From assembly GCA_003448685.1 (NCBI GenBank), contig DLXW01000274.1, forward strand, positions 4,755 to 16,840: DNA of 12,086 nt, read 5' to 3'. Below are positions 3,905-11,899 of the stretch, piece by piece; position 1 is the stretch's first letter; each line of letters begins with the position of its first letter. The notes below the pieces were generated by a model that worked only from the letters and a program-made list of their open reading frames with translations, ran no database searches and was not told where the DNA came from. The translations under genes and the position numbers were made by a program. This stretch comes from Cyanothece sp. UBA12306. Its GTDB lineage: Bacteria; Cyanobacteriota; Cyanobacteriia; Cyanobacteriales; Microcystaceae.

Positions 3905-3935
3905 TAGCGGGGTGAAAAACCCCGCTATATTTTTC
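3905..3935 (+). terminator. intrinsic terminator of psb27
   Basis: Perfect 9-bp stem TAGCGGGGT / ACCCCGCTA with a GAAAA loop (3905-3927), followed by TATTTTTC. It begins 17 bases after the psb27 stop. Because it ends only 40 bases before the next ATG (3975), it separates psb27 from the following module and implies that the module has its own promoter in the short AT-rich interval 3936-3974. A TATTAT lies there at 3958-3963, but without a matching -35. Confidence 0.9.
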
Positions 3936-3974: not shown

Positions 3975-6900
3975 ATGAGTAATCTTGTTTTAGTTCCTAT
4001 CCAAATCGATGGGTTACATCTTCAGTTTGGAAGTAGTGTGGCCGAAGCATCAGCAGAGTTTGAAAGTTTACCTTATTTTAATAACAGAAGAGATATTAAT
4101 CCCGATATAGCTAATCTCAGTGAGTTAATGGTTAGCCAAGCGTTTCAGAATAAAAATCTCTTTTTGAAAGGTGGAATACATCTTCATTGGGCATTACCAG
4201 ATGCTTTGACACAGGAGATGGAGGAGGGTATTTTTCCCGCAGTTCCTAACCGTTGGCTAGTCAGAAGAAAAGATGATGAAGGGATCATATCTTGGGTAGT
4301 AGAGAGTGATTATTTATATCCAGTTACAGCAATTTTTCAAGAGAATAGTGTTAGTTTTCCTTGTGAAAATAAGGACAATGTAACGGATCAAAGATTTCGT
4401 TATTTAGGTCGGAAGTTACCATTTGCTCAATGGTCAGAAAATGATTCTGCTGAGTATTTAAACCGTTTAACTGTGGTCGGTTATGGCGAACCTACCTTTG
4501 CTGCTTTTTATCCAAATTGTCGTAGTGTTTTTGGATTTCATGATGGGAAATATTCAGAGAATACGCCCATTGTTGAGGGATTACAATATGATGTAATTGG
4601 TTGGTATAGTAACCCTAACCAAGATTATTTAAAGGAGTTTTTAGAAGTTTTTAAAAGGGAATATTTAGATAGTTTTTCTGAGGAAGCTAGTTTAGATGAA
4701 TTATTAGAAGTCATTAAAGATGAGTTGCAATGGAAAGGGGTTGTTTTAGAGGATAATAATCAATCACCTGATCTAGTTTGTTATTCTCGTTTAATTTTTA
4801 ATCCCCCTCCTGACTATCAAGGACAAAGTTCCTTAAAACCAGTTGATATTACCTTAGCCGTGGGTAATACTGGAACAGAGGCTTTGTCTGCTTATTTAGC
4901 CCAAACCATTAAACCGACTCAAAAAGGGATTATTGAGGAACAATTAGAAGCTTTACAGTTATCAGAGACATTAAATAGCCAAAACCTCGATATTGGGGCA
5001 AAATTTCAGCAAATGCGCCACGAATCTGGATTTGATGCCGTAACTGCTGGAATTCGTTGGACGATAGTTTTAGAGACACAACGGGGAAAAGCAGGGGAAG
5101 CATCTTCTGAGAGTCATTTGCATTTACCCGAAAGGCTGATTAATCAACTCGGTGATTTGAATCAGTTACAACGCACCTATAATCAAAATTTAGGGGAAAT
5201 TCAATCTCGACGCAAGCAACTGTTTGCAGACTGGTATAAATACATGATCTCAGTTTATCCCCCTGAACAGAGTTCGGATGATTATCCTGAGATTGACAGA
5301 GTTAAATATTATGTGGAAACGCAAGATTTAGAGCCATTAAATTCTCTTTTAAACCAAACAGGGGAATTTAGCCTAGTAACAGATGAAACGGGGCGGTTAA
5401 TTGCAGCGAGGACGGAAGGCACTGAAAATACATTAGCTTTTGAGATCACCAATGGGATCAATGGATTAATTACGAATATCAATCGTTATAATTTAGATAT
5501 TACAGAAGAAAATAACAATAATACTCCCTCTAAACCCACTTATCGCCTAGAAACAATTGCTGACGCTCGTTATTGGCAACCGAAAGAACCAGTGGTTCTT
5601 ATGGTGGGGGACGAAGTGAAGGCAACACAACGCTACGGGTTTGATAGTCGTTTAACAGAGGATGGTTTACTACCTTGTGTCACCATTCCTAATAAAAATA
5701 TATCAGATTTAATTAATGAAGAATTTGCGACAATTGTTGATTATTTAGACGGTTTATCGGCTGAAAATCCATCTATTGGTCTTAATATCTGGAAAAAAAA
5801 ACCTTGGAACCCGTTTATCTTACAGTGGTTAGTGGAAGTTTTTCCCGTCTCCAACTTTAATAATAAGACGACAGAAAATCGCCAGTATAAAAAGAATTTT
5901 CTCACAGCGAATTATAGTTTAAAGGAGCAAGCGGTTGATTTATCGCCTAAATCAGCTTATGAGATTTTAAACAATCCTTCAAACCCTAATCACATTAAAA
6001 CAGACCGAGATTCTCATATTTACAGTGGTTTTAGTTTGTTAACCCCCTATGCTAATTTTCTGTTACAAGAACGAATTGAAACCTATTTAAACAAATATGA
6101 TGATAAAACGGAGACAATGGTCAATCCAGCTTATCAAATTATTAGTAAGTATGAGCAAAAATTAGCTAGTGGAGATAAAAGGGATAAACAGATAGAAAAT
6201 ACTATTAGACGACAAATTCCTCTTAATTTCCCCGAGTATTCTCAGGCGATCGCCATTGATGATGATCCTTATTTGGGTGATTTAAACAATATTCAGACCT
6301 TAAAAGTTTTTTTTGAAGAAAATAACCTGGTTAACTTGCCCAGTCCTATATTTACTGCGAAAGAAGCTCAAAACAACTTAGAAAATCTCAATTGCTTATC
6401 CCAGTCCTTGAGTGGCTTTAATGAAGCGATGCTAATGTTCAAGCAGACGCTACAATTAGAAATTGATGATCCCCTAGGATTTCCTGACTATCAAAGCTTT
6501 ACCGAAGCAGTTAAAACCGCAGTAGCAGGGGAAAATAGTAGCGCGCCCCAACCTTTGGATGATTTTAGTCCCATTCGCGCTGGGGAGTTACGCATCATTG
6601 AGTTAAGCTTAATTGATAGTTTTGGACAGGTTCGCAGTTTAGACTGGGGCGATCGCATCATCACCCCTGAACCGTTGAAAACCAATGAATCGGATCGTCT
6701 GCTGCTTCCCCCTCGTTTTGTGCCACCCATACGGCTTAATTTTCGCTTTTTAGGGGCAGATAAAAGAGAAAATGAGAGTTTTGAGGATACGCCGATTTGT
6801 GGCTGGATTATTCCCAACAATCTTAATGGTAGCCTTAATATTCACAGTAATAGGGGACAAGCATTAGGGGCAATTAATATTAATGGGGAATGGGATTATG

Positions 6901-8051
6901 CCCCTGGAAGTAATACGTTTGAACCTAATGATATTCCAAATTTACATTTGCGCAAAGTAGTCAAGCAAATTTTAAGCTTATCAGAAGTAACTCAAAATAG
7001 TAGTGAGAAATTTATCGATAACTTCTTAATTACCCTGAATAATGCCTTAGAAAATATTGATCCTGAAAATTTTGCCCAAAATCAAAGTGTAGCCTTATTA
7101 TTGGGTCGTCCTATAGCAGTGATTCGGGCTAGTATAAACTTAGAATTAGAAGGTATTGCAGCAATTAGCCAAGATTGGCATATTTTTCGCCAAGAAATGC
7201 AGCAATTACTCCCGTTAACCCAAAGAAATAACGATAATTTTGTCAATGTTGACTTTCCCATTCGTATTGGAGAATATCAACAACTCAATGATGGTGTCAT
7301 TGGTTATTGGAAAGAAACAGAAGAACCAGAGAGCGAGGGAGGATATGGCTATGAAAACGAGATATTCTATGCCCAACAGAGTGATAGTAACGAATCTCGC
7401 TATATTGAGACACAATTCTTTGATCCCAACAATATTCCTGGGGTGAGTGAAGAAAGTCCCATTAATATTATGCAATCTATCGCCAGTCCTGGGCAAAAGC
7501 TAACCCTATTGGTTGACCCCAGGGGGAGTATTCATGCTACTTCTGGTATTTTACCCAGTAAAGTATTGACAATTCCTCCAGAACAATATTTAGATGTCTT
7601 GTCTTCCATTGAAGTCACCTTTTTGACCTCTCCTATTATAAGCGATCGCCAAAAATTGAATTTACCTTTACCAACAGAACCAGAATATGATTGGTCTTGG
7701 TTAGAAAAACGGGGGGAACAATGGTCAGAAATATTCACCTTTGCGGTGATAGAAAGGTCAACTTTTATTGCTAATTTTCCTCAAGAAAATGGGGATACGG
7801 TTTGGGAAAATTTAATCACTCAAGGATGGTTAAGACCATTAGGAAATGAAACAGAGCAAGCAGAAGTCATTGCCAAAGATCAACGAGAAATATTAACTGA
7901 TAATTTGGCAAATTTAGATAGTATAATTGAGACAGTCTTTGATCTTAATAAAATTAGAATTGAACCCGTAACAACCTTAGCTAATTTTCCTGGATCTCAA
8001 GAAATTAGAGAAGGTTGGTTGGTGCTACGAAAAGTTAATTCAGTTGAATAA
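3975..8051 (+). CDS. very large conserved-looking protein of unknown function (1358 aa)
   Basis: I cannot assign a function or a named domain. The protein looks soluble: no signal peptide, no transmembrane helix and few cysteines. Visible landmarks are an N-terminal block GGIHLHWALPDAL (66-78) running into FPAVPNRWLVRR (87-98); a helical, probably coiled-coil segment LINQLGDLNQLQRTYNQNLG (388-407) continuing to about 424; ADARYWQPKEPVVLMVG (529-545); PWNPFILQWLVEVFPV (610-625); a beta-rich region with ELSLIDSFGQVRSLDWGDRI (876-895), RLLLPPRFVPPIRLNFRFLG (908-927) and CGWIIPNNLNGSLNIH (942-957); LTLLVDPRGSIHATSGILP (1176-1194); and a tryptophan-rich C-terminus (1238-1350). I have a loose memory of the GIHLHWALPDAL / FPAVPNRWLV pattern in large uncharacterised bacterial proteins. 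An in-frame GTG at 3912 is rejected as the start because it lies inside the psb27 terminator. The ATG at 3975 lacks a clear Shine-Dalgarno sequence. Three HIP1 sites lie inside the gene. It leads a three-gene set with the 53-aa and fibre-like proteins, so a structural or assembly partner role for the fibre is the best inference. Confidence 0.85.
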   Translation: MSNLVLVPIQIDGLHLQFGSSVAEASAEFESLPYFNNRRDINPDIANLSELMVSQAFQNKNLFLKGGIHLHWALPDALTQEMEEGIFPAVPNRWLVRRKDDEGIISWVVESDYLYPVTAIFQENSVSFPCENKDNVTDQRFRYLGRKLPFAQWSENDSAEYLNRLTVVGYGEPTFAAFYPNCRSVFGFHDGKYSENTPIVEGLQYDVIGWYSNPNQDYLKEFLEVFKREYLDSFSEEASLDELLEVIKDELQWKGVVLEDNNQSPDLVCYSRLIFNPPPDYQGQSSLKPVDITLAVGNTGTEALSAYLAQTIKPTQKGIIEEQLEALQLSETLNSQNLDIGAKFQQMRHESGFDAVTAGIRWTIVLETQRGKAGEASSESHLHLPERLINQLGDLNQLQRTYNQNLGEIQSRRKQLFADWYKYMISVYPPEQSSDDYPEIDRVKYYVETQDLEPLNSLLNQTGEFSLVTDETGRLIAARTEGTENTLAFEITNGINGLITNINRYNLDITEENNNNTPSKPTYRLETIADARYWQPKEPVVLMVGDEVKATQRYGFDSRLTEDGLLPCVTIPNKNISDLINEEFATIVDYLDGLSAENPSIGLNIWKKKPWNPFILQWLVEVFPVSNFNNKTTENRQYKKNFLTANYSLKEQAVDLSPKSAYEILNNPSNPNHIKTDRDSHIYSGFSLLTPYANFLLQERIETYLNKYDDKTETMVNPAYQIISKYEQKLASGDKRDKQIENTIRRQIPLNFPEYSQAIAIDDDPYLGDLNNIQTLKVFFEENNLVNLPSPIFTAKEAQNNLENLNCLSQSLSGFNEAMLMFKQTLQLEIDDPLGFPDYQSFTEAVKTAVAGENSSAPQPLDDFSPIRAGELRIIELSLIDSFGQVRSLDWGDRIITPEPLKTNESDRLLLPPRFVPPIRLNFRFLGADKRENESFEDTPICGWIIPNNLNGSLNIHSNRGQALGAININGEWDYAPGSNTFEPNDIPNLHLRKVVKQILSLSEVTQNSSEKFIDNFLITLNNALENIDPENFAQNQSVALLLGRPIAVIRASINLELEGIAAISQDWHIFRQEMQQLLPLTQRNNDNFVNVDFPIRIGEYQQLNDGVIGYWKETEEPESEGGYGYENEIFYAQQSDSNESRYIETQFFDPNNIPGVSEESPINIMQSIASPGQKLTLLVDPRGSIHATSGILPSKVLTIPPEQYLDVLSSIEVTFLTSPIISDRQKLNLPLPTEPEYDWSWLEKRGEQWSEIFTFAVIERSTFIANFPQENGDTVWENLITQGWLRPLGNETEQAEVIAKDQREILTDNLANLDSIIETVFDLNKIRIEPVTTLANFPGSQEIREGWLVLRKVNSVE

Positions 8052-8096
8052 TTAACTCAGATTTTCAGTCAAACAATAGCGTTAACTTAGGAATTT

Positions 8097-8258
8097 ATGG
8101 AACAAATTAGCTTAAATTTAACCGTGGAAGAAGTCAACCAAATCTTGGAAGTATTGGGACAATTACCTTATGTTAAAGTGTGCCAAATTATTAACAAAAT
8201 TCAGGTGCAAGCAGAAGCACAGCTAGAAGCCAAAAAACAGCATCAACAAGAAATGTAA
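8097..8258 (+). CDS. small helical protein, phage-associated type (53 aa)
   Basis: A 53-codon gene starting at ATG 8097 with AGGA (8089-8092) four bases upstream and ending in TAA, lying in the gap between the two large genes (45 bp after one, 43 bp before the other). The product begins MEQISLNLTVEEVNQILEVL and continues GQLPYVKVCQIINKIQVQAE, ending in a charged, glutamine-rich tail. It reads as two amphipathic helices joined by a GQLPY turn. Short proteins of the form 'LT-VEE-N-IL-ALG-LPY-V---I-KIQ-QA' are, in my recollection, common as unnamed open frames in tailed-phage genomes; this was not checked by search. Position and spacing argue for an operon with both neighbours. Possible roles are a small chaperone or adaptor for the fibre, but this is inference. 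Confidence 0.72.
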   Translation: MEQISLNLTVEEVNQILEVLGQLPYVKVCQIINKIQVQAEAQLEAKKQHQQEM

Positions 8259-8301
8259 ACCAAACTCATCCTTAAATAATAGTTAAACAGGAGCATTAAA
8301 A

Positions 8302-10548
8302 ATGACAGTAAGCAACCAAATAATTCTCAATCAAAATATTATCACTTCCGATGTTTTTCAAGTCTTTTTATTTGACGAAGATGGTCAAAATGTCTTAGGA
8401 ATTGATGAAGGAAACCTCAAACAGAGTTTAACCATTGAGCTTGTTAATACCTCTGGGAAAAACATTGAATTACAAACTATTAGTGACGAAATTAGCAGTA
8501 ATAATTATCATTTTTGTTTCTTATTTCGTCCTGGAACTATTTTACCTGATAGTTTAAATGAAATTACTTTAAAACAAAGCACAGAAGGCTGGAAATTACA
8601 ACAACAAGATCACACCTTTTATTGTTTATTAACCGCCAATGCTTCTCAAAATAGAACCATTGCACCAGGAGCCAAAATCACCTTAACCCTAGAAAATATT
8701 AGTGCAGCACCAGAAGGGGGTTCTCGCGGTACAAGAGTCCAAATAAAATACAATTATCTGAACTATCAAGGATCAAACGAAGACTTAAGCGGTAACCGTT
8801 TACAGTATCTCAATATTGTTAATCAAAGAGGTAAAAAAACTGTTCCCCTTCACGTCAGTTGTTTAGGATCAAATACCATTCTTAATGATGGAACTGAGAA
8901 CGAATTAACCCTCAGCATTAGCTATTTATATAATGGTCGTTTACCTTTAAAAATTGCCTCTGAACAAGATATTCAAGAAACCTTAACTAACCTCAATTTA
9001 ACAGAGAATTTAAAGCTAACTTCCTTAGAAGAAATGACCGAAATCAATGGAGAAACTAGTATTATGTCTCTCCATGAAATGAAGGAAATGAGTCAAGAAA
9101 AATTAGACAGTATGATTGGTAATTTATTAGTAGTCACCGCAGATAAAAATAAACCAGTTGAAGGTAATTTAAAGTTAAAAGGTATCAAGGAAGGTTTCCT
9201 TGATCAAGCCACAAGATTAAGTATTTCTTTTGATGTTGCTCAGGAGAATAATGACGCTGCAAACTGGGCATTAATTGAAGCTAATAATGCTGATGATGTT
9301 AACATTTCTATCATGGCAGGTCAAGATCATTGGTTATTTGATGGTCGTCATGATCTGGGTTTAACACCTCAATGGCATTTTATCTGTAAAAATGCCTGGC
9401 AAGCTGTTGAAGCAAAAGAAATTTTAAGGCTGAAAATTAGTAATTTCAAAACCTTACTCAAAGCTGGATTTGCTAACCTTTATGTACGTTATGAAAATGT
9501 GCCTGGATATTGGGATGGACAAATTATAGTTCCTATTCATAAAGGGCCTTTAGTCTATCGAGAAATGACAAATGAAATTGGCAGTGTCGGTATTGGAACT
9601 GATGAACCTAAAGCCAAATTACATATTAAACAAAAAGAAGATAATCATGCTGCAATTTTTGAGGGAGGAAATGTAGGAATTGGAACGACAACCCCCGAAG
9701 CTACTCTACATCTTAATATTAATAATAGTCAATCAGAAGATAGTATTTTATTAGGCAATACTGATAGTAAAGGTTTGAGATTACGAGATACCGGAGGAGC
9801 AGTTGATATAGAAAGTTTAGGCGTTCCTTTATACATTAATAACAGTGGTCAAAATACCTTAATTAATTCCGAAAATGCTGGAAATGTTGGTATTGGAACC
9901 ACTGATCCAGGTGATAATAAACTAAAAATACAAGGAAAAACAGAGATTGCAGGTAATCTATCAGTTACTAATGGGTTAGTGGGTATTGGTTCTGCAAACT
10001 TGTCTAAAGAACCTTTAGTCATTCGAGCAAGAGAAAGACAAGAAAGTTTAATTGCTTTTGAGGATCCCCAAGGGAGAAAAAAATGGCACATTGAACAAAA
10101 TTATGGTGGAAATAAACCAGGATTAAATTTTGTTGAAACTGGGGTAAAAGATTTTCGATTATTTATTGGAAAAGGGGGAAATGTTGGTATTGGAACAGGA
10201 AACCCTAGTGATAAACTACATATAAAAGGAAGTTTAAGAGTTGATGGCAACTTGAAAATTCAAGGAACGGAACCCATCATTATTCGTAGATATAACAATT
10301 TAGGAGATAGTATTAATTATAATACCAATTGTTCTGCAAGTACCTATACTGCTGCGATCATCGGTTTTCGCGCGCTAAATGGAGATATTAAAGAAAATGA
10401 TACAGGAAATATTATTCAAGTCTATATGTATATTAACAGTGGGATATGGTATATTCGTGCTGATTTTCGTACCCACAAAAATAACGAAACCTGGTACGTT
10501 GATGTCATGTTTATCCGCAATGAATTAGTCAAGAGAATTGGTTACTAA
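8302..10548 (+). CDS. tail-fibre-like / adhesin-like protein with VGIGT repeats (748 aa)
   Basis: Likely an elongated, possibly trimeric fibre protein. It has a good ribosome-binding site (AGGAG at 8289-8293, eight bases before the ATG). Residues 1-420 look like beta-sandwich domains and include an apparent duplication: ITLTLENISA....IKYNYLNYQG (126-157) resembles LRLKISNFKT....VRYENVPGYWDG (375-405). Residues 428-643 carry five repeats of the pattern VGIGT-x2-P-x-KLHI, the last degenerate-free copy at 627-642. These are typical of the shaft regions of bacterial and phage fibre proteins. A cap domain follows (about 655-748; RRYNNLGDSINYNT, GNIIQVYMYINSGIWYIRAD). The S74 intramolecular chaperone often found after such repeats is not visible. 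There is no signal peptide, YadA anchor, LPXTG motif or transmembrane helix, so export by Sec is unlikely; either it stays inside the cell, is released by lysis, or belongs to an injection particle. It follows the 53-aa gene by 43 bp. Confidence 0.8.
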   Translation: MTVSNQIILNQNIITSDVFQVFLFDEDGQNVLGIDEGNLKQSLTIELVNTSGKNIELQTISDEISSNNYHFCFLFRPGTILPDSLNEITLKQSTEGWKLQQQDHTFYCLLTANASQNRTIAPGAKITLTLENISAAPEGGSRGTRVQIKYNYLNYQGSNEDLSGNRLQYLNIVNQRGKKTVPLHVSCLGSNTILNDGTENELTLSISYLYNGRLPLKIASEQDIQETLTNLNLTENLKLTSLEEMTEINGETSIMSLHEMKEMSQEKLDSMIGNLLVVTADKNKPVEGNLKLKGIKEGFLDQATRLSISFDVAQENNDAANWALIEANNADDVNISIMAGQDHWLFDGRHDLGLTPQWHFICKNAWQAVEAKEILRLKISNFKTLLKAGFANLYVRYENVPGYWDGQIIVPIHKGPLVYREMTNEIGSVGIGTDEPKAKLHIKQKEDNHAAIFEGGNVGIGTTTPEATLHLNINNSQSEDSILLGNTDSKGLRLRDTGGAVDIESLGVPLYINNSGQNTLINSENAGNVGIGTTDPGDNKLKIQGKTEIAGNLSVTNGLVGIGSANLSKEPLVIRARERQESLIAFEDPQGRKKWHIEQNYGGNKPGLNFVETGVKDFRLFIGKGGNVGIGTGNPSDKLHIKGSLRVDGNLKIQGTEPIIIRRYNNLGDSINYNTNCSASTYTAAIIGFRALNGDIKENDTGNIIQVYMYINSGIWYIRADFRTHKNNETWYVDVMFIRNELVKRIGY
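9583..10227 (+). repeat. five VGIGT-type shaft repeats inside the fibre-like gene
   Basis: Units begin at 9583 (SVGIGTDEPKAKLHIK), 9670 (NVGIGTTTPEATLHLN), 9883 (NVGIGTTDPGDNKLKIQ), 9976 (LVGIGSANLSKEPLVIR, degenerate) and 10180 (NVGIGTGNPSDKLHIKG). Spacing is irregular (87 to 213 bases), because linkers of different kinds sit between units, so this is a protein-level repeat. The DNA core GGAAATGTTGGTATTGGAAC is identical at two of the sites (around 9880 and 10177) and could support recombination between units. Confidence 0.85.
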
Positions 10549-10588: not shown

Positions 10589-11176
10589 ATGATTATTGAA
10601 ACCCAAAAACAACATTATACCTCCGAAGAATATTTAATATTAGAGGAACAAGCAACAGAAAAACATGAATATCGAGACGGAGAAATTGTACTCATGACAG
10701 GAGGAACCACTAATCATAATCAAATTGCAGGTAATTTTTGTCGCAAATTTCCCTTAACAATTAAGGATCAGGATTATTATATCTATATCAATGATGTTCG
10801 CTTATGGATACCTCAATATCGTGTCTATACCTATCCTGATGTAATGGTAATTAAAGGAAAACCAATTTATGAAGTAACGGGTACAATAAACGTAACGAAT
10901 CCTTTAATTATTGTTGAAATTCTTTCCAAATCGACACAAGATTATGATCGAACAGATAAGTTAACTTATTATCGTTCTATTCCTGAATTTAAAGAATATA
11001 TTTTAATAGATCAATATCGTTTTTATGTGGCTCAATATGTTAAGCAAGAGGATAAAAAATGGCTTTTTAATGATTATCAAGGAGAAGAAGCTATTTTAAA
11101 ATTGGCTTCAGATGAGTTTGAAATTGCGTTACAAGATTTGTATGCAAGAGTTGATTTTGAGTTAGATGGAGGGTGA
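10589..11176 (+). CDS. Uma2 family (DUF820) PD-(D/E)XK endonuclease
   Basis: Putative restriction-endonuclease-fold protein of the Uma2 family, which is greatly expanded in cyanobacteria; physiological roles are mostly unknown and a link to mobile elements or DNA processing is only suspected. Seen in 195 aa: the N-terminal YTSEEYLILEE helix (10-20), the HEYRDGEIVLMTGGT strand pair (26-40), TNHNQIAGNF (41-50), the first catalytic aspartate in YPDVMVIKG (D84), the second acidic residue in IIVEILSKST (E110), and DKLTYYRSIPEFKEYILID (123-141). The full-length core is present with no obvious loss of a key residue. It starts 40 bp after the fibre-like gene with its own ribosome-binding site. Co-transcription with that gene is possible because no terminator is seen between them, but a functional link is not implied. 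Confidence 0.9.
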   Translation: MIIETQKQHYTSEEYLILEEQATEKHEYRDGEIVLMTGGTTNHNQIAGNFCRKFPLTIKDQDYYIYINDVRLWIPQYRVYTYPDVMVIKGKPIYEVTGTINVTNPLIIVEILSKSTQDYDRTDKLTYYRSIPEFKEYILIDQYRFYVAQYVKQEDKKWLFNDYQGEEAILKLASDEFEIALQDLYARVDFELDGG

Positions 11177-11199
11177 TTCTACAACAGGGAAAACAATTA

Positions 11200-11218
11200 A
11201 ATAATTACACTAATTATT
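11200..11218. repeat. AT-only inverted repeat between the two nuclease genes
   Basis: AATAATTA-CAC-TAATTATT is a perfect 8-bp inverted repeat with a three-base loop, lying in the 54-bp gap after the Uma2 gene. It has no G or C in the stem and no T-run after it, so it is unlikely to be a strong terminator. It could be a weak hairpin, a protein site or chance in AT-rich DNA. Confidence 0.35.
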
Positions 11219-11230
11219 CCAGTTAAGTCT

Positions 11231-11899
11231 ATGATTCAAACTTACCCAATTTCTAAAACCATAACAACATTAGCTGATCTTGAACAAAGATTTAATTTGT
11301 CTCCCACTAATAATGAGCAATTTTTTCGTGAATGGCAAGAAAATTTACCTAAATTAACTTCTCAAGAAAAAGAAAATTTAGACCAAATAAAAAGACGATT
11401 TGAACGTCATAGAAAACAAAATTCTTTAGCAGAAGGAGTTATTAATCAATTACTTATTTCTCCTTTATTAACATTAGCTGGTTTATATGATGATCCTTTT
11501 TATCTTACTACTGAAGCAAGTGTTGAACTAGAAGTAGAAGAAAAAAAAGAAATTTTGCGCGGCAGAATTGACACTTTAATTATTTCTCAACAGCTTTGGA
11601 TTTTAATCATTGAATCTAAATCTACTATTGCTTTTACGGTTGCTTTACCACAAATAATGACATATATGTTAGCCAATCCTAACCCTGAAATTCCTGTCTA
11701 TGGTTTAATTGGGAATGGGGATGAATTTATGTTTATTAAAATGTCAACTTCAGGGGTTCCTCAGTATGATTTGTCTAATATTTATTCCTTACTTTTACCG
11801 CACAAAAATCAGTTATATGATGTTTGTCGTATTCTTAAGCAAATTGCAAATATAATGGCTATAAATTTGAAAGATAAGCCAACAAAAACAATTAATTAA
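11231..11899 (+). CDS. PD-(D/E)XK nuclease-like protein, RecB/type I R-subunit-like
   Basis: Small nuclease-fold protein of 222 aa. Seen in order: an N-terminal helical region (1-65); the helix AEGVINQLLISPLL with E69; a strand GRIDTLI with D114; IIESKST with the E128-x-K130 pair; and QIMTYML with Q141-x3-Y145, the QxxxY motif of RecB-type and type I R-subunit nuclease domains. The catalytic set E-D-ExK-QxxxY looks intact. It resembles the N-terminal nuclease domain of type I restriction R subunits, but the helicase/translocase part is absent and no hsdM or hsdS gene is near. Stand-alone proteins of this kind are, to my knowledge, common hypothetical proteins in cyanobacteria, so it is not a complete restriction system. 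The ATG at 11231 has no evident Shine-Dalgarno sequence. It ends 28 bp before the nucleotidyltransferase gene and may be co-transcribed with it. Confidence 0.8.
   Translation: MIQTYPISKTITTLADLEQRFNLSPTNNEQFFREWQENLPKLTSQEKENLDQIKRRFERHRKQNSLAEGVINQLLISPLLTLAGLYDDPFYLTTEASVELEVEEKKEILRGRIDTLIISQQLWILIIESKSTIAFTVALPQIMTYMLANPNPEIPVYGLIGNGDEFMFIKMSTSGVPQYDLSNIYSLLLPHKNQLYDVCRILKQIANIMAINLKDKPTKTIN

What the first reader, a model, noticed from the sequence alone, without database searches (positions are those of the whole stretch)
3975..10548. Possible undescribed three-gene module: 1358-aa protein, 53-aa helical protein, VGIGT-repeat fibre
The three genes share a strand and have short gaps (45 and 43 bp), and the module is insulated on its left by a strong terminator. 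The third protein is fibre-like, the second resembles small phage proteins, and the first is very large and unassigned. All lack signal peptides and membrane helices, which is odd for surface adhesins but normal for phage-tail or contractile-injection parts. No other particle gene lies in the window, so this is either an orphan fibre module that serves a particle encoded elsewhere or a stand-alone system. The module role is inference.
Basis: partly seen in the sequence, partly recalled or inferred. Interest (0 to 1): 0.72.

Follow-up and report, generated by a model that had tools for sequence, protein, structure and literature searches.

The report
Sheathless fibre-aimed enzyme delivery cluster
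In a cyanobacterium, these three genes are part of a gene cluster found in six or more bacterial phyla that often joins a phage-like fibre to an exchangeable enzyme gene, and it is predicted to build a so far undescribed machine that would carry the enzyme to other cells.

Summary
The three ORFs are real and their pairing is conserved. A FIBRE gene lies near BIG in 21 of 26 loci, and DUF6603 in 18 of the 19 whose contig reaches far enough. In 148 related genomes BIG and DUF6603 co-occur 13/3/1/131.

Two segments are exchanged independently between close relatives: the FIBRE tip, and the slot gene (MBL nuclease-like, endonuclease/exonuclease-like, lipase, or no known family). The first ~220-450 residues of DUF6603 are present in 16 of 16 slot loci scored, missing (by length) from 6 slot-less ones, and track the slot family.

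BIG has a confident model with no fold match found. DUF6603 looks like a long amphipathic beta-sheet, in a weak model. A sheath gene was never found at the module: elsewhere in the 9 genomes with both, absent from 7 of 16 BIG genomes.

Best reading: a fibre-aimed, cargo-carrying complex with an unknown core. Cluster and swaps are shown; delivery is inferred (about 0.45).

The parts
3905..3927 (+). Intrinsic terminator between psb27 and BIG; left edge of the module
   Evidence: 9-bp stem, -17.4 kcal/mol, z -4.5
3975..8051 (+). BIG, 1358 aa, core protein of unknown function (no Pfam, NCBIfam, PHROG, PADLOC or PDB sequence match)
   Evidence: structure of a 47%-identical homologue P0107: pLDDT 85.6, pTM 0.84, no Foldseek match better than E 0.2 in PDB or 0.076 in viral models
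8097..8258 (+). SMALL, 53 aa, consensus LTxxExNxiLeaLGxxPxxxVxxlixkiQxQa; phage relative in a tail gene block
   Evidence: consensus of 9; best Microcystis phage MACPNOA1, E 4e-5; the gene lies two after the tape measure gene and just before an 858-aa unknown; 8 of 26 loci
8302..10548 (+). FIBRE, 748 aa, tail-fibre-like protein
   Evidence: PHROG tail fibre E 2e-9, in the repeat part; bd2133, E 0.003; 389 homologues among 7987 candidates scored
8302..8931 (+). FIBRE N-terminal conserved region (about residues 1-210), the part shared by homologues; many carry a LamG lectin domain before it, the window protein does not
9586..10197 (+). Five VGIGT/VGIGS repeats (residues 429, 458, 529, 560, 628), close to the motif V-G-G/N-x-x-x-P-x-x-x-L described for trimeric beta-helix fibres
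   Evidence: motif from a passage of PMC10769870; the match is by eye
10249..10548 (+). FIBRE C-terminal tip (about residues 650-748); in some relatives this part is Peptidase_S74, Collar or Gp10_C, and it is exchanged
10589..11176 (+). Uma2 nuclease-like gene, passenger between FIBRE and the slot gene (not core)
   Evidence: PF05685 E 6.5e-28 (scanned from 10586)
11231..11899 (+). HSDR_N-like nuclease gene, passenger (not core); related ORFs near the module in L013 and L023 and look-alikes in Microcystis G031/G046
   Evidence: PF04313 E 1e-4, below the family cut-off

Best explanation
BIG, SMALL and FIBRE are the first three genes of a conserved cluster (BIG, SMALL, FIBRE, variable slot gene, DUF6603, C3) that is predicted to assemble into a sheath-less complex which likely binds other cells through the fibre and would hand over an enzyme riding on DUF6603. 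Shown: the cluster, its spread over phyla, the co-occurrence, the exchangeable fibre tip and the exchangeable slot gene. Also shown: the N-terminal extension of DUF6603 that appears with a slot gene and follows its family, and catalytic motifs kept in the MBL, lipase, EEP and subtilase proteins looked at. Predicted: FIBRE is a trimeric fibre whose N-terminal part sits on the particle and whose tip chooses the target. SMALL would help attach or fold the fibre, as its closest phage relative lies in a tail gene block. BIG and C3 would be the structural body. The DUF6603 extension would be the docking site for the cargo enzyme. The amphipathic beta-sheet of DUF6603 would be the part that meets lipid or membrane. 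Release, as no part examined has an obvious signal peptide, would be by lysis.
For: Conserved neighbourhood in loci from Cyanobacteria, Chloroflexota, Acidobacteriota, Bacteroidota, Pseudomonadota and Actinomycetota, and as DUF6603-C3-BIG without a recognised FIBRE on a Bacillota plasmid. BIG x DUF6603 in 148 genomes 13/3/1/131; C3 in 17 of 148. Slot swap: window genome vs Crocosphaera BIG 87%, FIBRE 75%, DUF6603 74%, C3 89%, slot no BLAST hit; of 8 pairs compared 4 have unrelated slots. Microcystis G042 vs Cylindrospermum: slot 58%, DUF6603 extension 80%, DUF6603 core 51%, BIG 42%. The extension tracks the slot: 0 of 2000 Mantel permutations, also with the core partialled out. It is present in 16 of 16 slot loci scored; 6 slot-less loci have short DUF6603 of 915-1137 aa. 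Slot enzymes: MBL HxDxDH motif in 9 of 9, lipase GHSLG in 1 of 1, EEP GDFN in 3 of 3 (families). Tips: Peptidase_S74, Collar, Gp10_C. DUF6603 strands alternate in hydrophobicity, z 7.0 vs 1.4 for BIG; best structural rows are ushers, porins, LptD and apoB.
Against: No experiment and no secretion route. The BIG fold matches nothing, so its role as body is a guess. The DUF6603 model is poor (pLDDT 60.6, pTM 0.48; Foldseek TM by query length at most 0.19 in the rows shown; VIA rmsd 10-16 A). The slot protein of the window's own genome (625 aa) has no recognised enzyme domain and no relative in the other 387 genomes searched. Some loci have no slot gene. The extension lies next to the slot gene, so one recombination tract could carry both, and the extension also follows the DUF6603 core (partial 0.38, same as for the slot); 15 of 89 pairs with unrelated slots still share some extension similarity. 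Several slot calls are below the Pfam cut-off (see full report). The MBL slot protein tested also resembles anti-phage effectors. The one PLD-like candidate shows no HKD motif.
Confidence: 0.45

Rival explanations
1. A surface or matrix complex: the fibre, with lectin domains, holds the complex on polysaccharide or on neighbouring cells, and the slot enzyme degrades extracellular DNA, lipid or protein there, without entry into a target cell.
For: LamG lectin domains in many FIBRE homologues; enzyme types (nuclease-like, lipase, subtilase) suit extracellular digestion; patchy occurrence, 7 of 386 cyanobacterial genomes.
Against: No signal peptide or anchor by hydropathy in the proteins examined; the cargo-matched extension of DUF6603 and its amphipathic sheet are not needed for it.
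Confidence: 0.22
2. An anti-phage defence system: BIG, C3 and DUF6603 sense infection and release a nuclease or lipase effector from the slot; the fibre part was borrowed from phages.
For: MBL slot protein of Herpetosiphon matches LmuA (E 2e-22), a reverse-transcriptase-associated MBL (1e-20) and Avs1a (1e-10); exchangeable effectors and patchy spread are usual for defence (general knowledge); passenger genes include Uma2, HSDR_N-like and, by eye, nucleotidyltransferase/HEPN-like ORFs.
Against: No PADLOC match of BIG, FIBRE, DUF6603 or C3; a receptor-type fibre with exchangeable tips has no evident place in an intracellular sensor.
Confidence: 0.17
3. Accessory fibres and cargo for a contractile injection system encoded elsewhere in the genome.
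For: Sheath gene in 9 of 16 BIG genomes vs 40 of 132 others, p 0.049 uncorrected; on a Paenibacillus plasmid the module lies about 9 kb from baseplate-V-like genes.
Against: In the 9 genomes with both, the sheath gene lies on another contig (8, draft assemblies) or over 2 Mb away (G046); four contractile loci read around a sheath gene hold none of the five families; near-complete BIG genomes G139, G029, G048 show no sheath gene.
Confidence: 0.08
4. A decayed prophage or tailocin.
For: Tail-fibre-like FIBRE; SMALL has a phage relative.
Against: BIG, FIBRE and a DUF6603 protein have no tblastn match in 50,697 phage records, and a pattern scan of IMG/VR found no BIG (close relatives only); BIG keeps 38-72% identity to the Chloroflexota protein P0107 over the 76 other rows, so it is maintained.
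Confidence: 0.03

Closest known systems
Extracellular contractile injection systems (eCIS)
   Same: Receptor-binding fibres with exchangeable tips (S74, collar) and varied associated toxins; catalogue PMC12923769 (start of abstract and passages seen), PMC8213781 (start of abstract seen).
   Different: No sheath gene at the module; BIG, C3 and DUF6603 have no named function and gave no injection-system family in the scans (BIG; DUF6603 and C3: Pfam only).
Tc (ABC) toxins
   Same: In function only: a translocator and an exchangeable enzyme in a dedicated complex (PMC6868009, start of abstract seen).
MAT fibres of Bdellovibrio (mosaic adhesive trimers)
   Same: Repeats close to V-G-G/N-x-x-x-P-x-x-x-L, S74 or other C-terminal tips swapped on a conserved fibre; FIBRE weakly hits Bd2133 (E 0.003; passages of PMC10769870 seen).
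   Different: MATs have a signal peptide and the passages seen mention no BIG/DUF6603/C3-like cluster; FIBRE shows no obvious signal peptide.
DUF6603 (Pfam PF20248)
   Same: The cluster gene is a member: E 2e-141 in Herpetosiphon, 2.9e-138 in the window's genome.
   Different: The family has no assigned function in Pfam; no paper among the 5.39 million held mentions the name.

Membership tests
Contractile injection system (eCIS/tCIS/T6SS) | Contractile sheath gene (PF04984) in the gene cluster | tested here: not met
   in the 9 BIG genomes with a sheath gene it lies on other contigs (8, drafts) or over 2 Mb away (1); 7 of 16 BIG genomes show none
Contractile injection system (eCIS/tCIS/T6SS) | Tube, baseplate J and AAA+ genes in the gene cluster | not tested
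   families not searched one by one; none of the module proteins scanned matched such a family
Contractile injection system (eCIS/tCIS/T6SS) | Receptor-binding tail fibre with exchangeable tip | tested here: met
   (receptor binding itself not tested)
Tc (ABC) toxin | TcA/TcB/TcC sequence families (names recalled) | tested here: not met
   Pfam scans of BIG, DUF6603 and C3 list no such family; fold search of BIG inconclusive
Tc (ABC) toxin | Non-conserved toxic enzyme carried by a conserved scaffold | tested here: inconclusive
   slot gene varies and DUF6603 extension follows it; that it is carried is not shown
MAT fibre | Repeat motif V-G-G/N-x-x-x-P-x-x-x-L and exchangeable C-terminal tip | tested here: met
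   motif compared by eye
MAT fibre | N-terminal signal peptide | tested here: not met
   hydropathy only, best 19-residue mean of FIBRE 1.05; no dedicated predictor
MAT fibre | Trimeric beta-helix structure | not testable with these tools
   no multimer prediction on hand
DUF6603 (PF20248), the fifth gene | Profile match over cut-off | tested here: met
Known anti-phage defence system | Core proteins match PADLOC models | tested here: not met
   no match for BIG, FIBRE, DUF6603, C3; only the two slot proteins match (MBL strongly, EEP one weak row)
Prophage or tailocin | Homologues of the module proteins in phage genomes | tested here: not met
   none for BIG, FIBRE, DUF6603; C3 not searched there; SMALL has hits

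The most novel reading that the evidence does not exclude
A previously undescribed class of protein-delivery machine, unrelated to contractile injection systems and Tc toxins: a phage-type fibre with an exchangeable tip aims a particle built of BIG and C3, a cargo enzyme docks on the matched N-terminal domain of DUF6603, and the long amphipathic beta-sheet of DUF6603 carries it through the target membrane. Tip and cargo are swapped separately, as two cassettes, in a cluster spread over cyanobacteria, Chloroflexota, Actinomycetota and others.
Probability: 0.33. Interest if true: 0.92.

Novelty: categorically new. Interest (0 to 1): 0.76.

Why it matters
Known bacterial protein-delivery machines fall into few types. 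A six-gene cluster in six or more phyla with an unassigned core, an exchangeable aiming part and an exchangeable cargo matched to its carrier would be a new type, and gives Pfam family DUF6603 a testable role. It is directly testable: the slot protein should bind only the DUF6603 extension from its own locus. Even if the function is another one, the co-exchange of a slot gene with a neighbour's N-terminal domain is a concrete rule that any explanation must meet.

Tried and rejected
Contractile link: a hand-picked set of 30 genomes gave sheath in 10 of 15 BIG genomes against 1 of 15 others. Over all 148 relatives it shrank to 9 of 16 against 40 of 132 (p 0.049), so I dropped it as main evidence. 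Four contractile loci were read: none of the five module families there.

Papers: DUF6603 0 papers; VGIGT 13 papers, on microcin J25, other peptides and archaeal flagella by title; a search with DUF6603, PF20248 and MAT-fibre terms gave only the Bdellovibrio paper as relevant among the 20 of 73 listed; two multi-term searches gave nothing; two gave contractile-system and Tc papers; one gave 5 papers on such systems. Only open-licence PMC is held, so absence from print is not shown.

Own slot protein: no Pfam family, no significant PDB sequence match, no relative in the other 387 genomes of the order searched. Own DUF6603 extension against other extensions: best E 0.005, so no family for it. 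Its first 202 residues and the first residues on contig C195 (up to 300 codons read) gave no hit to the Crocosphaera protein at E 1e-3, although the longer C195 piece does align from its residue 151 on.

Recount: one search repeats the locus counts with profiles at E 1e-5. FIBRE scores in 22 of 26, but in L024 the signal is inside a BIG ORF, so I count 21. DUF6603 scores in 18; L007 adds a truncated ORF that clusters with DUF6603 only by BLAST and is counted as running off the contig.

Rows dropped from the slot/extension count: loci with a truncated or split DUF6603, unclear upstream or duplicates (L004, L007, L012 as copy of L073, L019, L022, L023, L025, L071, L079, L080, own genome). Of these L004 and L025 have short DUF6603 ORFs (901 aa) after a 189- or 117-aa ORF, L019 1341 aa with upstream not seen, L022 1202 aa after a 385-aa unknown ORF. 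Slot-less L075 was the reference for the core, so it lacks an extension by construction; for the other five the absence is judged by length.

Full report
What the window is. It lies on contig C281 of a 4.65-Mb draft genome, a cyanobacterium by its nearest BIG (Crocosphaera) and its psb27 gene. On the left are Ppx/GppA, a SulP-type transporter and psb27. A strong terminator separates psb27 from BIG. BIG (1358 aa), SMALL (53 aa) and FIBRE (748 aa) follow on one strand with 45- and 43-bp gaps.

The module does not end with FIBRE. A protein search found 1517 BIG homologues among the 7991 candidates scored; of the 120 listed only 2 carry a precomputed Pfam domain, PF13385. A genome scan gave 26 loci. 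Clustering of the ORFs around them and profile searches show a fixed set of partners. A FIBRE gene lies near BIG in 21 of 26 (gap under 1 kb except in L010, where DUF6603 stands between); of the other five, two end at BIG (L003, L027). SMALL is found in 8 of 26. DUF6603 is found in 18 of 26; seven of the eight others run off the contig, and L024 lacks it within the flank read. C3, a protein of about 620 aa with no Pfam family, is found in 12 of 26. The usual order is BIG-(SMALL)-FIBRE-slot-DUF6603-C3, in several loci with overlapping or nearly touching genes. On a Paenibacillus and a Streptomyces plasmid the order is DUF6603-C3-BIG, with no FIBRE recognised. In the window's own genome the contig goes on with passenger genes and a 625-aa slot gene, and ends inside a large ORF. 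The next piece is on contig C195, whose end overlaps C281 by exactly 22 bp and which carries DUF6603 and C3. Placing these next to each other is an inference from that overlap and from the related Crocosphaera locus.

Co-occurrence. In the same 148 related genomes BIG is in 16, DUF6603 in 14 and C3 in 17, two of them weak and one a fragment. BIG and DUF6603 share 13 genomes (Fisher p 5e-15, not corrected for kinship). Genome G037 keeps only a 55-aa remnant of BIG and an interrupted C3. Over the phylum BIG is rare: 7 of 386. A tree of 22 BIG proteins does not group the cyanobacteria as one clade, e.g. Kineosporia (Actinomycetota) sits with two cyanobacteria at 100/100. Horizontal spread is likely, not proven.

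Two exchangeable segments. Eight pairs were compared gene by gene. Window genome against Crocosphaera: BIG 87%, FIBRE 75% over its full length, DUF6603 74%, C3 89%, slot proteins without any BLAST hit. Two Okeania: BIG 88%, DUF6603 75%, C3 86%, slots unrelated (lipase against an unknown protein), FIBRE alike only over residues 1-580 of 862. Two Microcystis with the same right-hand flanking genes (G031, G042): BIG 81%, DUF6603 74%, C3 82%, slots unrelated, FIBRE alike only to residue 612 of 805. Cylindrospermum and Hormoscilla: BIG 69%, slots unrelated. Four pairs have similar slots: G031 and G046 (85%, but different fibre tips), two Prochloraceae loci (32%), Cylindrospermum and G042 (58%), G031 and Westiellopsis (34%). 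So tip and slot change separately. In relatives where a Pfam tip was mapped it is Peptidase_S74, Collar or Gp10_C, some below the cut-off. Among the 120 FIBRE homologues listed, 35 carry PF13884 (Peptidase_S74) and 34 carry PF13385 (LamG; N-terminal wherever its position was mapped) (counted by eye from the table, twice).

A carrier matched to its cargo. All 16 scored loci with a slot gene have a DUF6603 protein with an N-terminal extension of 216-451 residues; six slot-less loci have DUF6603 of 915-1137 residues. The extension follows the slot: Microcystis G042 and Cylindrospermum share slot (58%) and extension (80%) although BIG is only 42% identical, while G031 and G042, with BIG 81%, share neither. 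Over all 120 pairs the similarity of extension and slot correlates (Spearman 0.39; 0 of 2000 label permutations reach it; partial given the DUF6603 core 0.38, again 0 of 2000). The extension also follows the core equally well (partial 0.38). Of 31 pairs with similar slots 17 have similar extensions, of 89 without 15 do. One recombination tract may carry both slot gene and extension.

What the slot proteins are. MBL fold in nine loci, with the HxDxDH motif in 9 of 9 and HHGS in 7 of 9. By Pfam four of these are over the cut-off (L018, L006, L020, L014), three are below it (L017, L063, L081), and two were assigned by similarity only (L067, L078). The Herpetosiphon one is nearest to the ComEC/competence MBL domain in the PDB (E 4e-7). 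Exo_endo_phos-like in three (L082 over, L007 and L023 below the cut-off), GDFN in 3 of 3; a class-3 lipase in one with GHSLG; a subtilase two genes after FIBRE in the Acidobacteriota locus. Several have no known family, the window genome's own among them. The Herpetosiphon MBL protein also resembles defence effectors LmuA and Avs1a, which keeps the defence rival alive.

SMALL. Of five phage hits up to E 1 two are under E 0.01: one lies two genes after the tape measure gene of Microcystis phage MACPNOA1, the other three genes after a tail fibre gene in Bacillus phage P59. The other three are not significant; of these one lies between fibre and structural genes, one among structural genes and one among replication genes. 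A helper role for the fibre is inferred.

Verdict. Cluster, spread, co-occurrence and the two exchangeable segments are shown. The delivery function is the best single reading of aiming part plus exchangeable enzyme plus matched carrier, at about 0.45. It works like a fibre-aimed delivery system but is not a member of the contractile or Tc families by the features tested.

Noticed in passing
window 10589-11899, L048, L063, L067: A similar set of passenger genes (HSDR_N-like, Uma2, and by eye nucleotidyltransferase-like and HEPN-like ORFs) sits between FIBRE and the slot gene in the window's genome and in two Microcystis genomes, as if it travels with the module.
   Followed up: partly
L048 2272-2410: The 46 codons before the own slot gene are 78% identical over 23 residues to the methyltransferase/TPR gene that precedes the slot in Crocosphaera L081, a likely recombination scar.
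   Followed up: partly
L059, L060, L061: Distant DUF6603 genes on a haloarchaeal and two Streptomyces plasmids are followed by large proteins with weak similarity to C3 (E 1e-3 to 7e-5) and other giant unknown proteins: perhaps a wider superfamily of such clusters.
   Followed up: no
L078 (G037), G064 C1:2433751-2437551: Decaying copies: BIG reduced to 55 aa with a split C3 in one Microcystis genome, and an internal stop in BIG of G064.
   Followed up: no
L065, L066, L075: A second type of locus has two tandem FIBRE genes, no slot enzyme and a short DUF6603.
   Followed up: partly
L054 and L062 (Paenibacillus polymyxa plasmid): The module lies about 9 kb from an island with two baseplate-V-like genes, a DUF4280 gene and a GH-E nuclease gene; a PLD-like gene without an HKD motif lies downstream of BIG.
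   Followed up: partly
L022 19354-19788: An ORF that clusters with the window's Psb27 also lies next to the module in Hormoscilla; probably coincidence.
   Followed up: no
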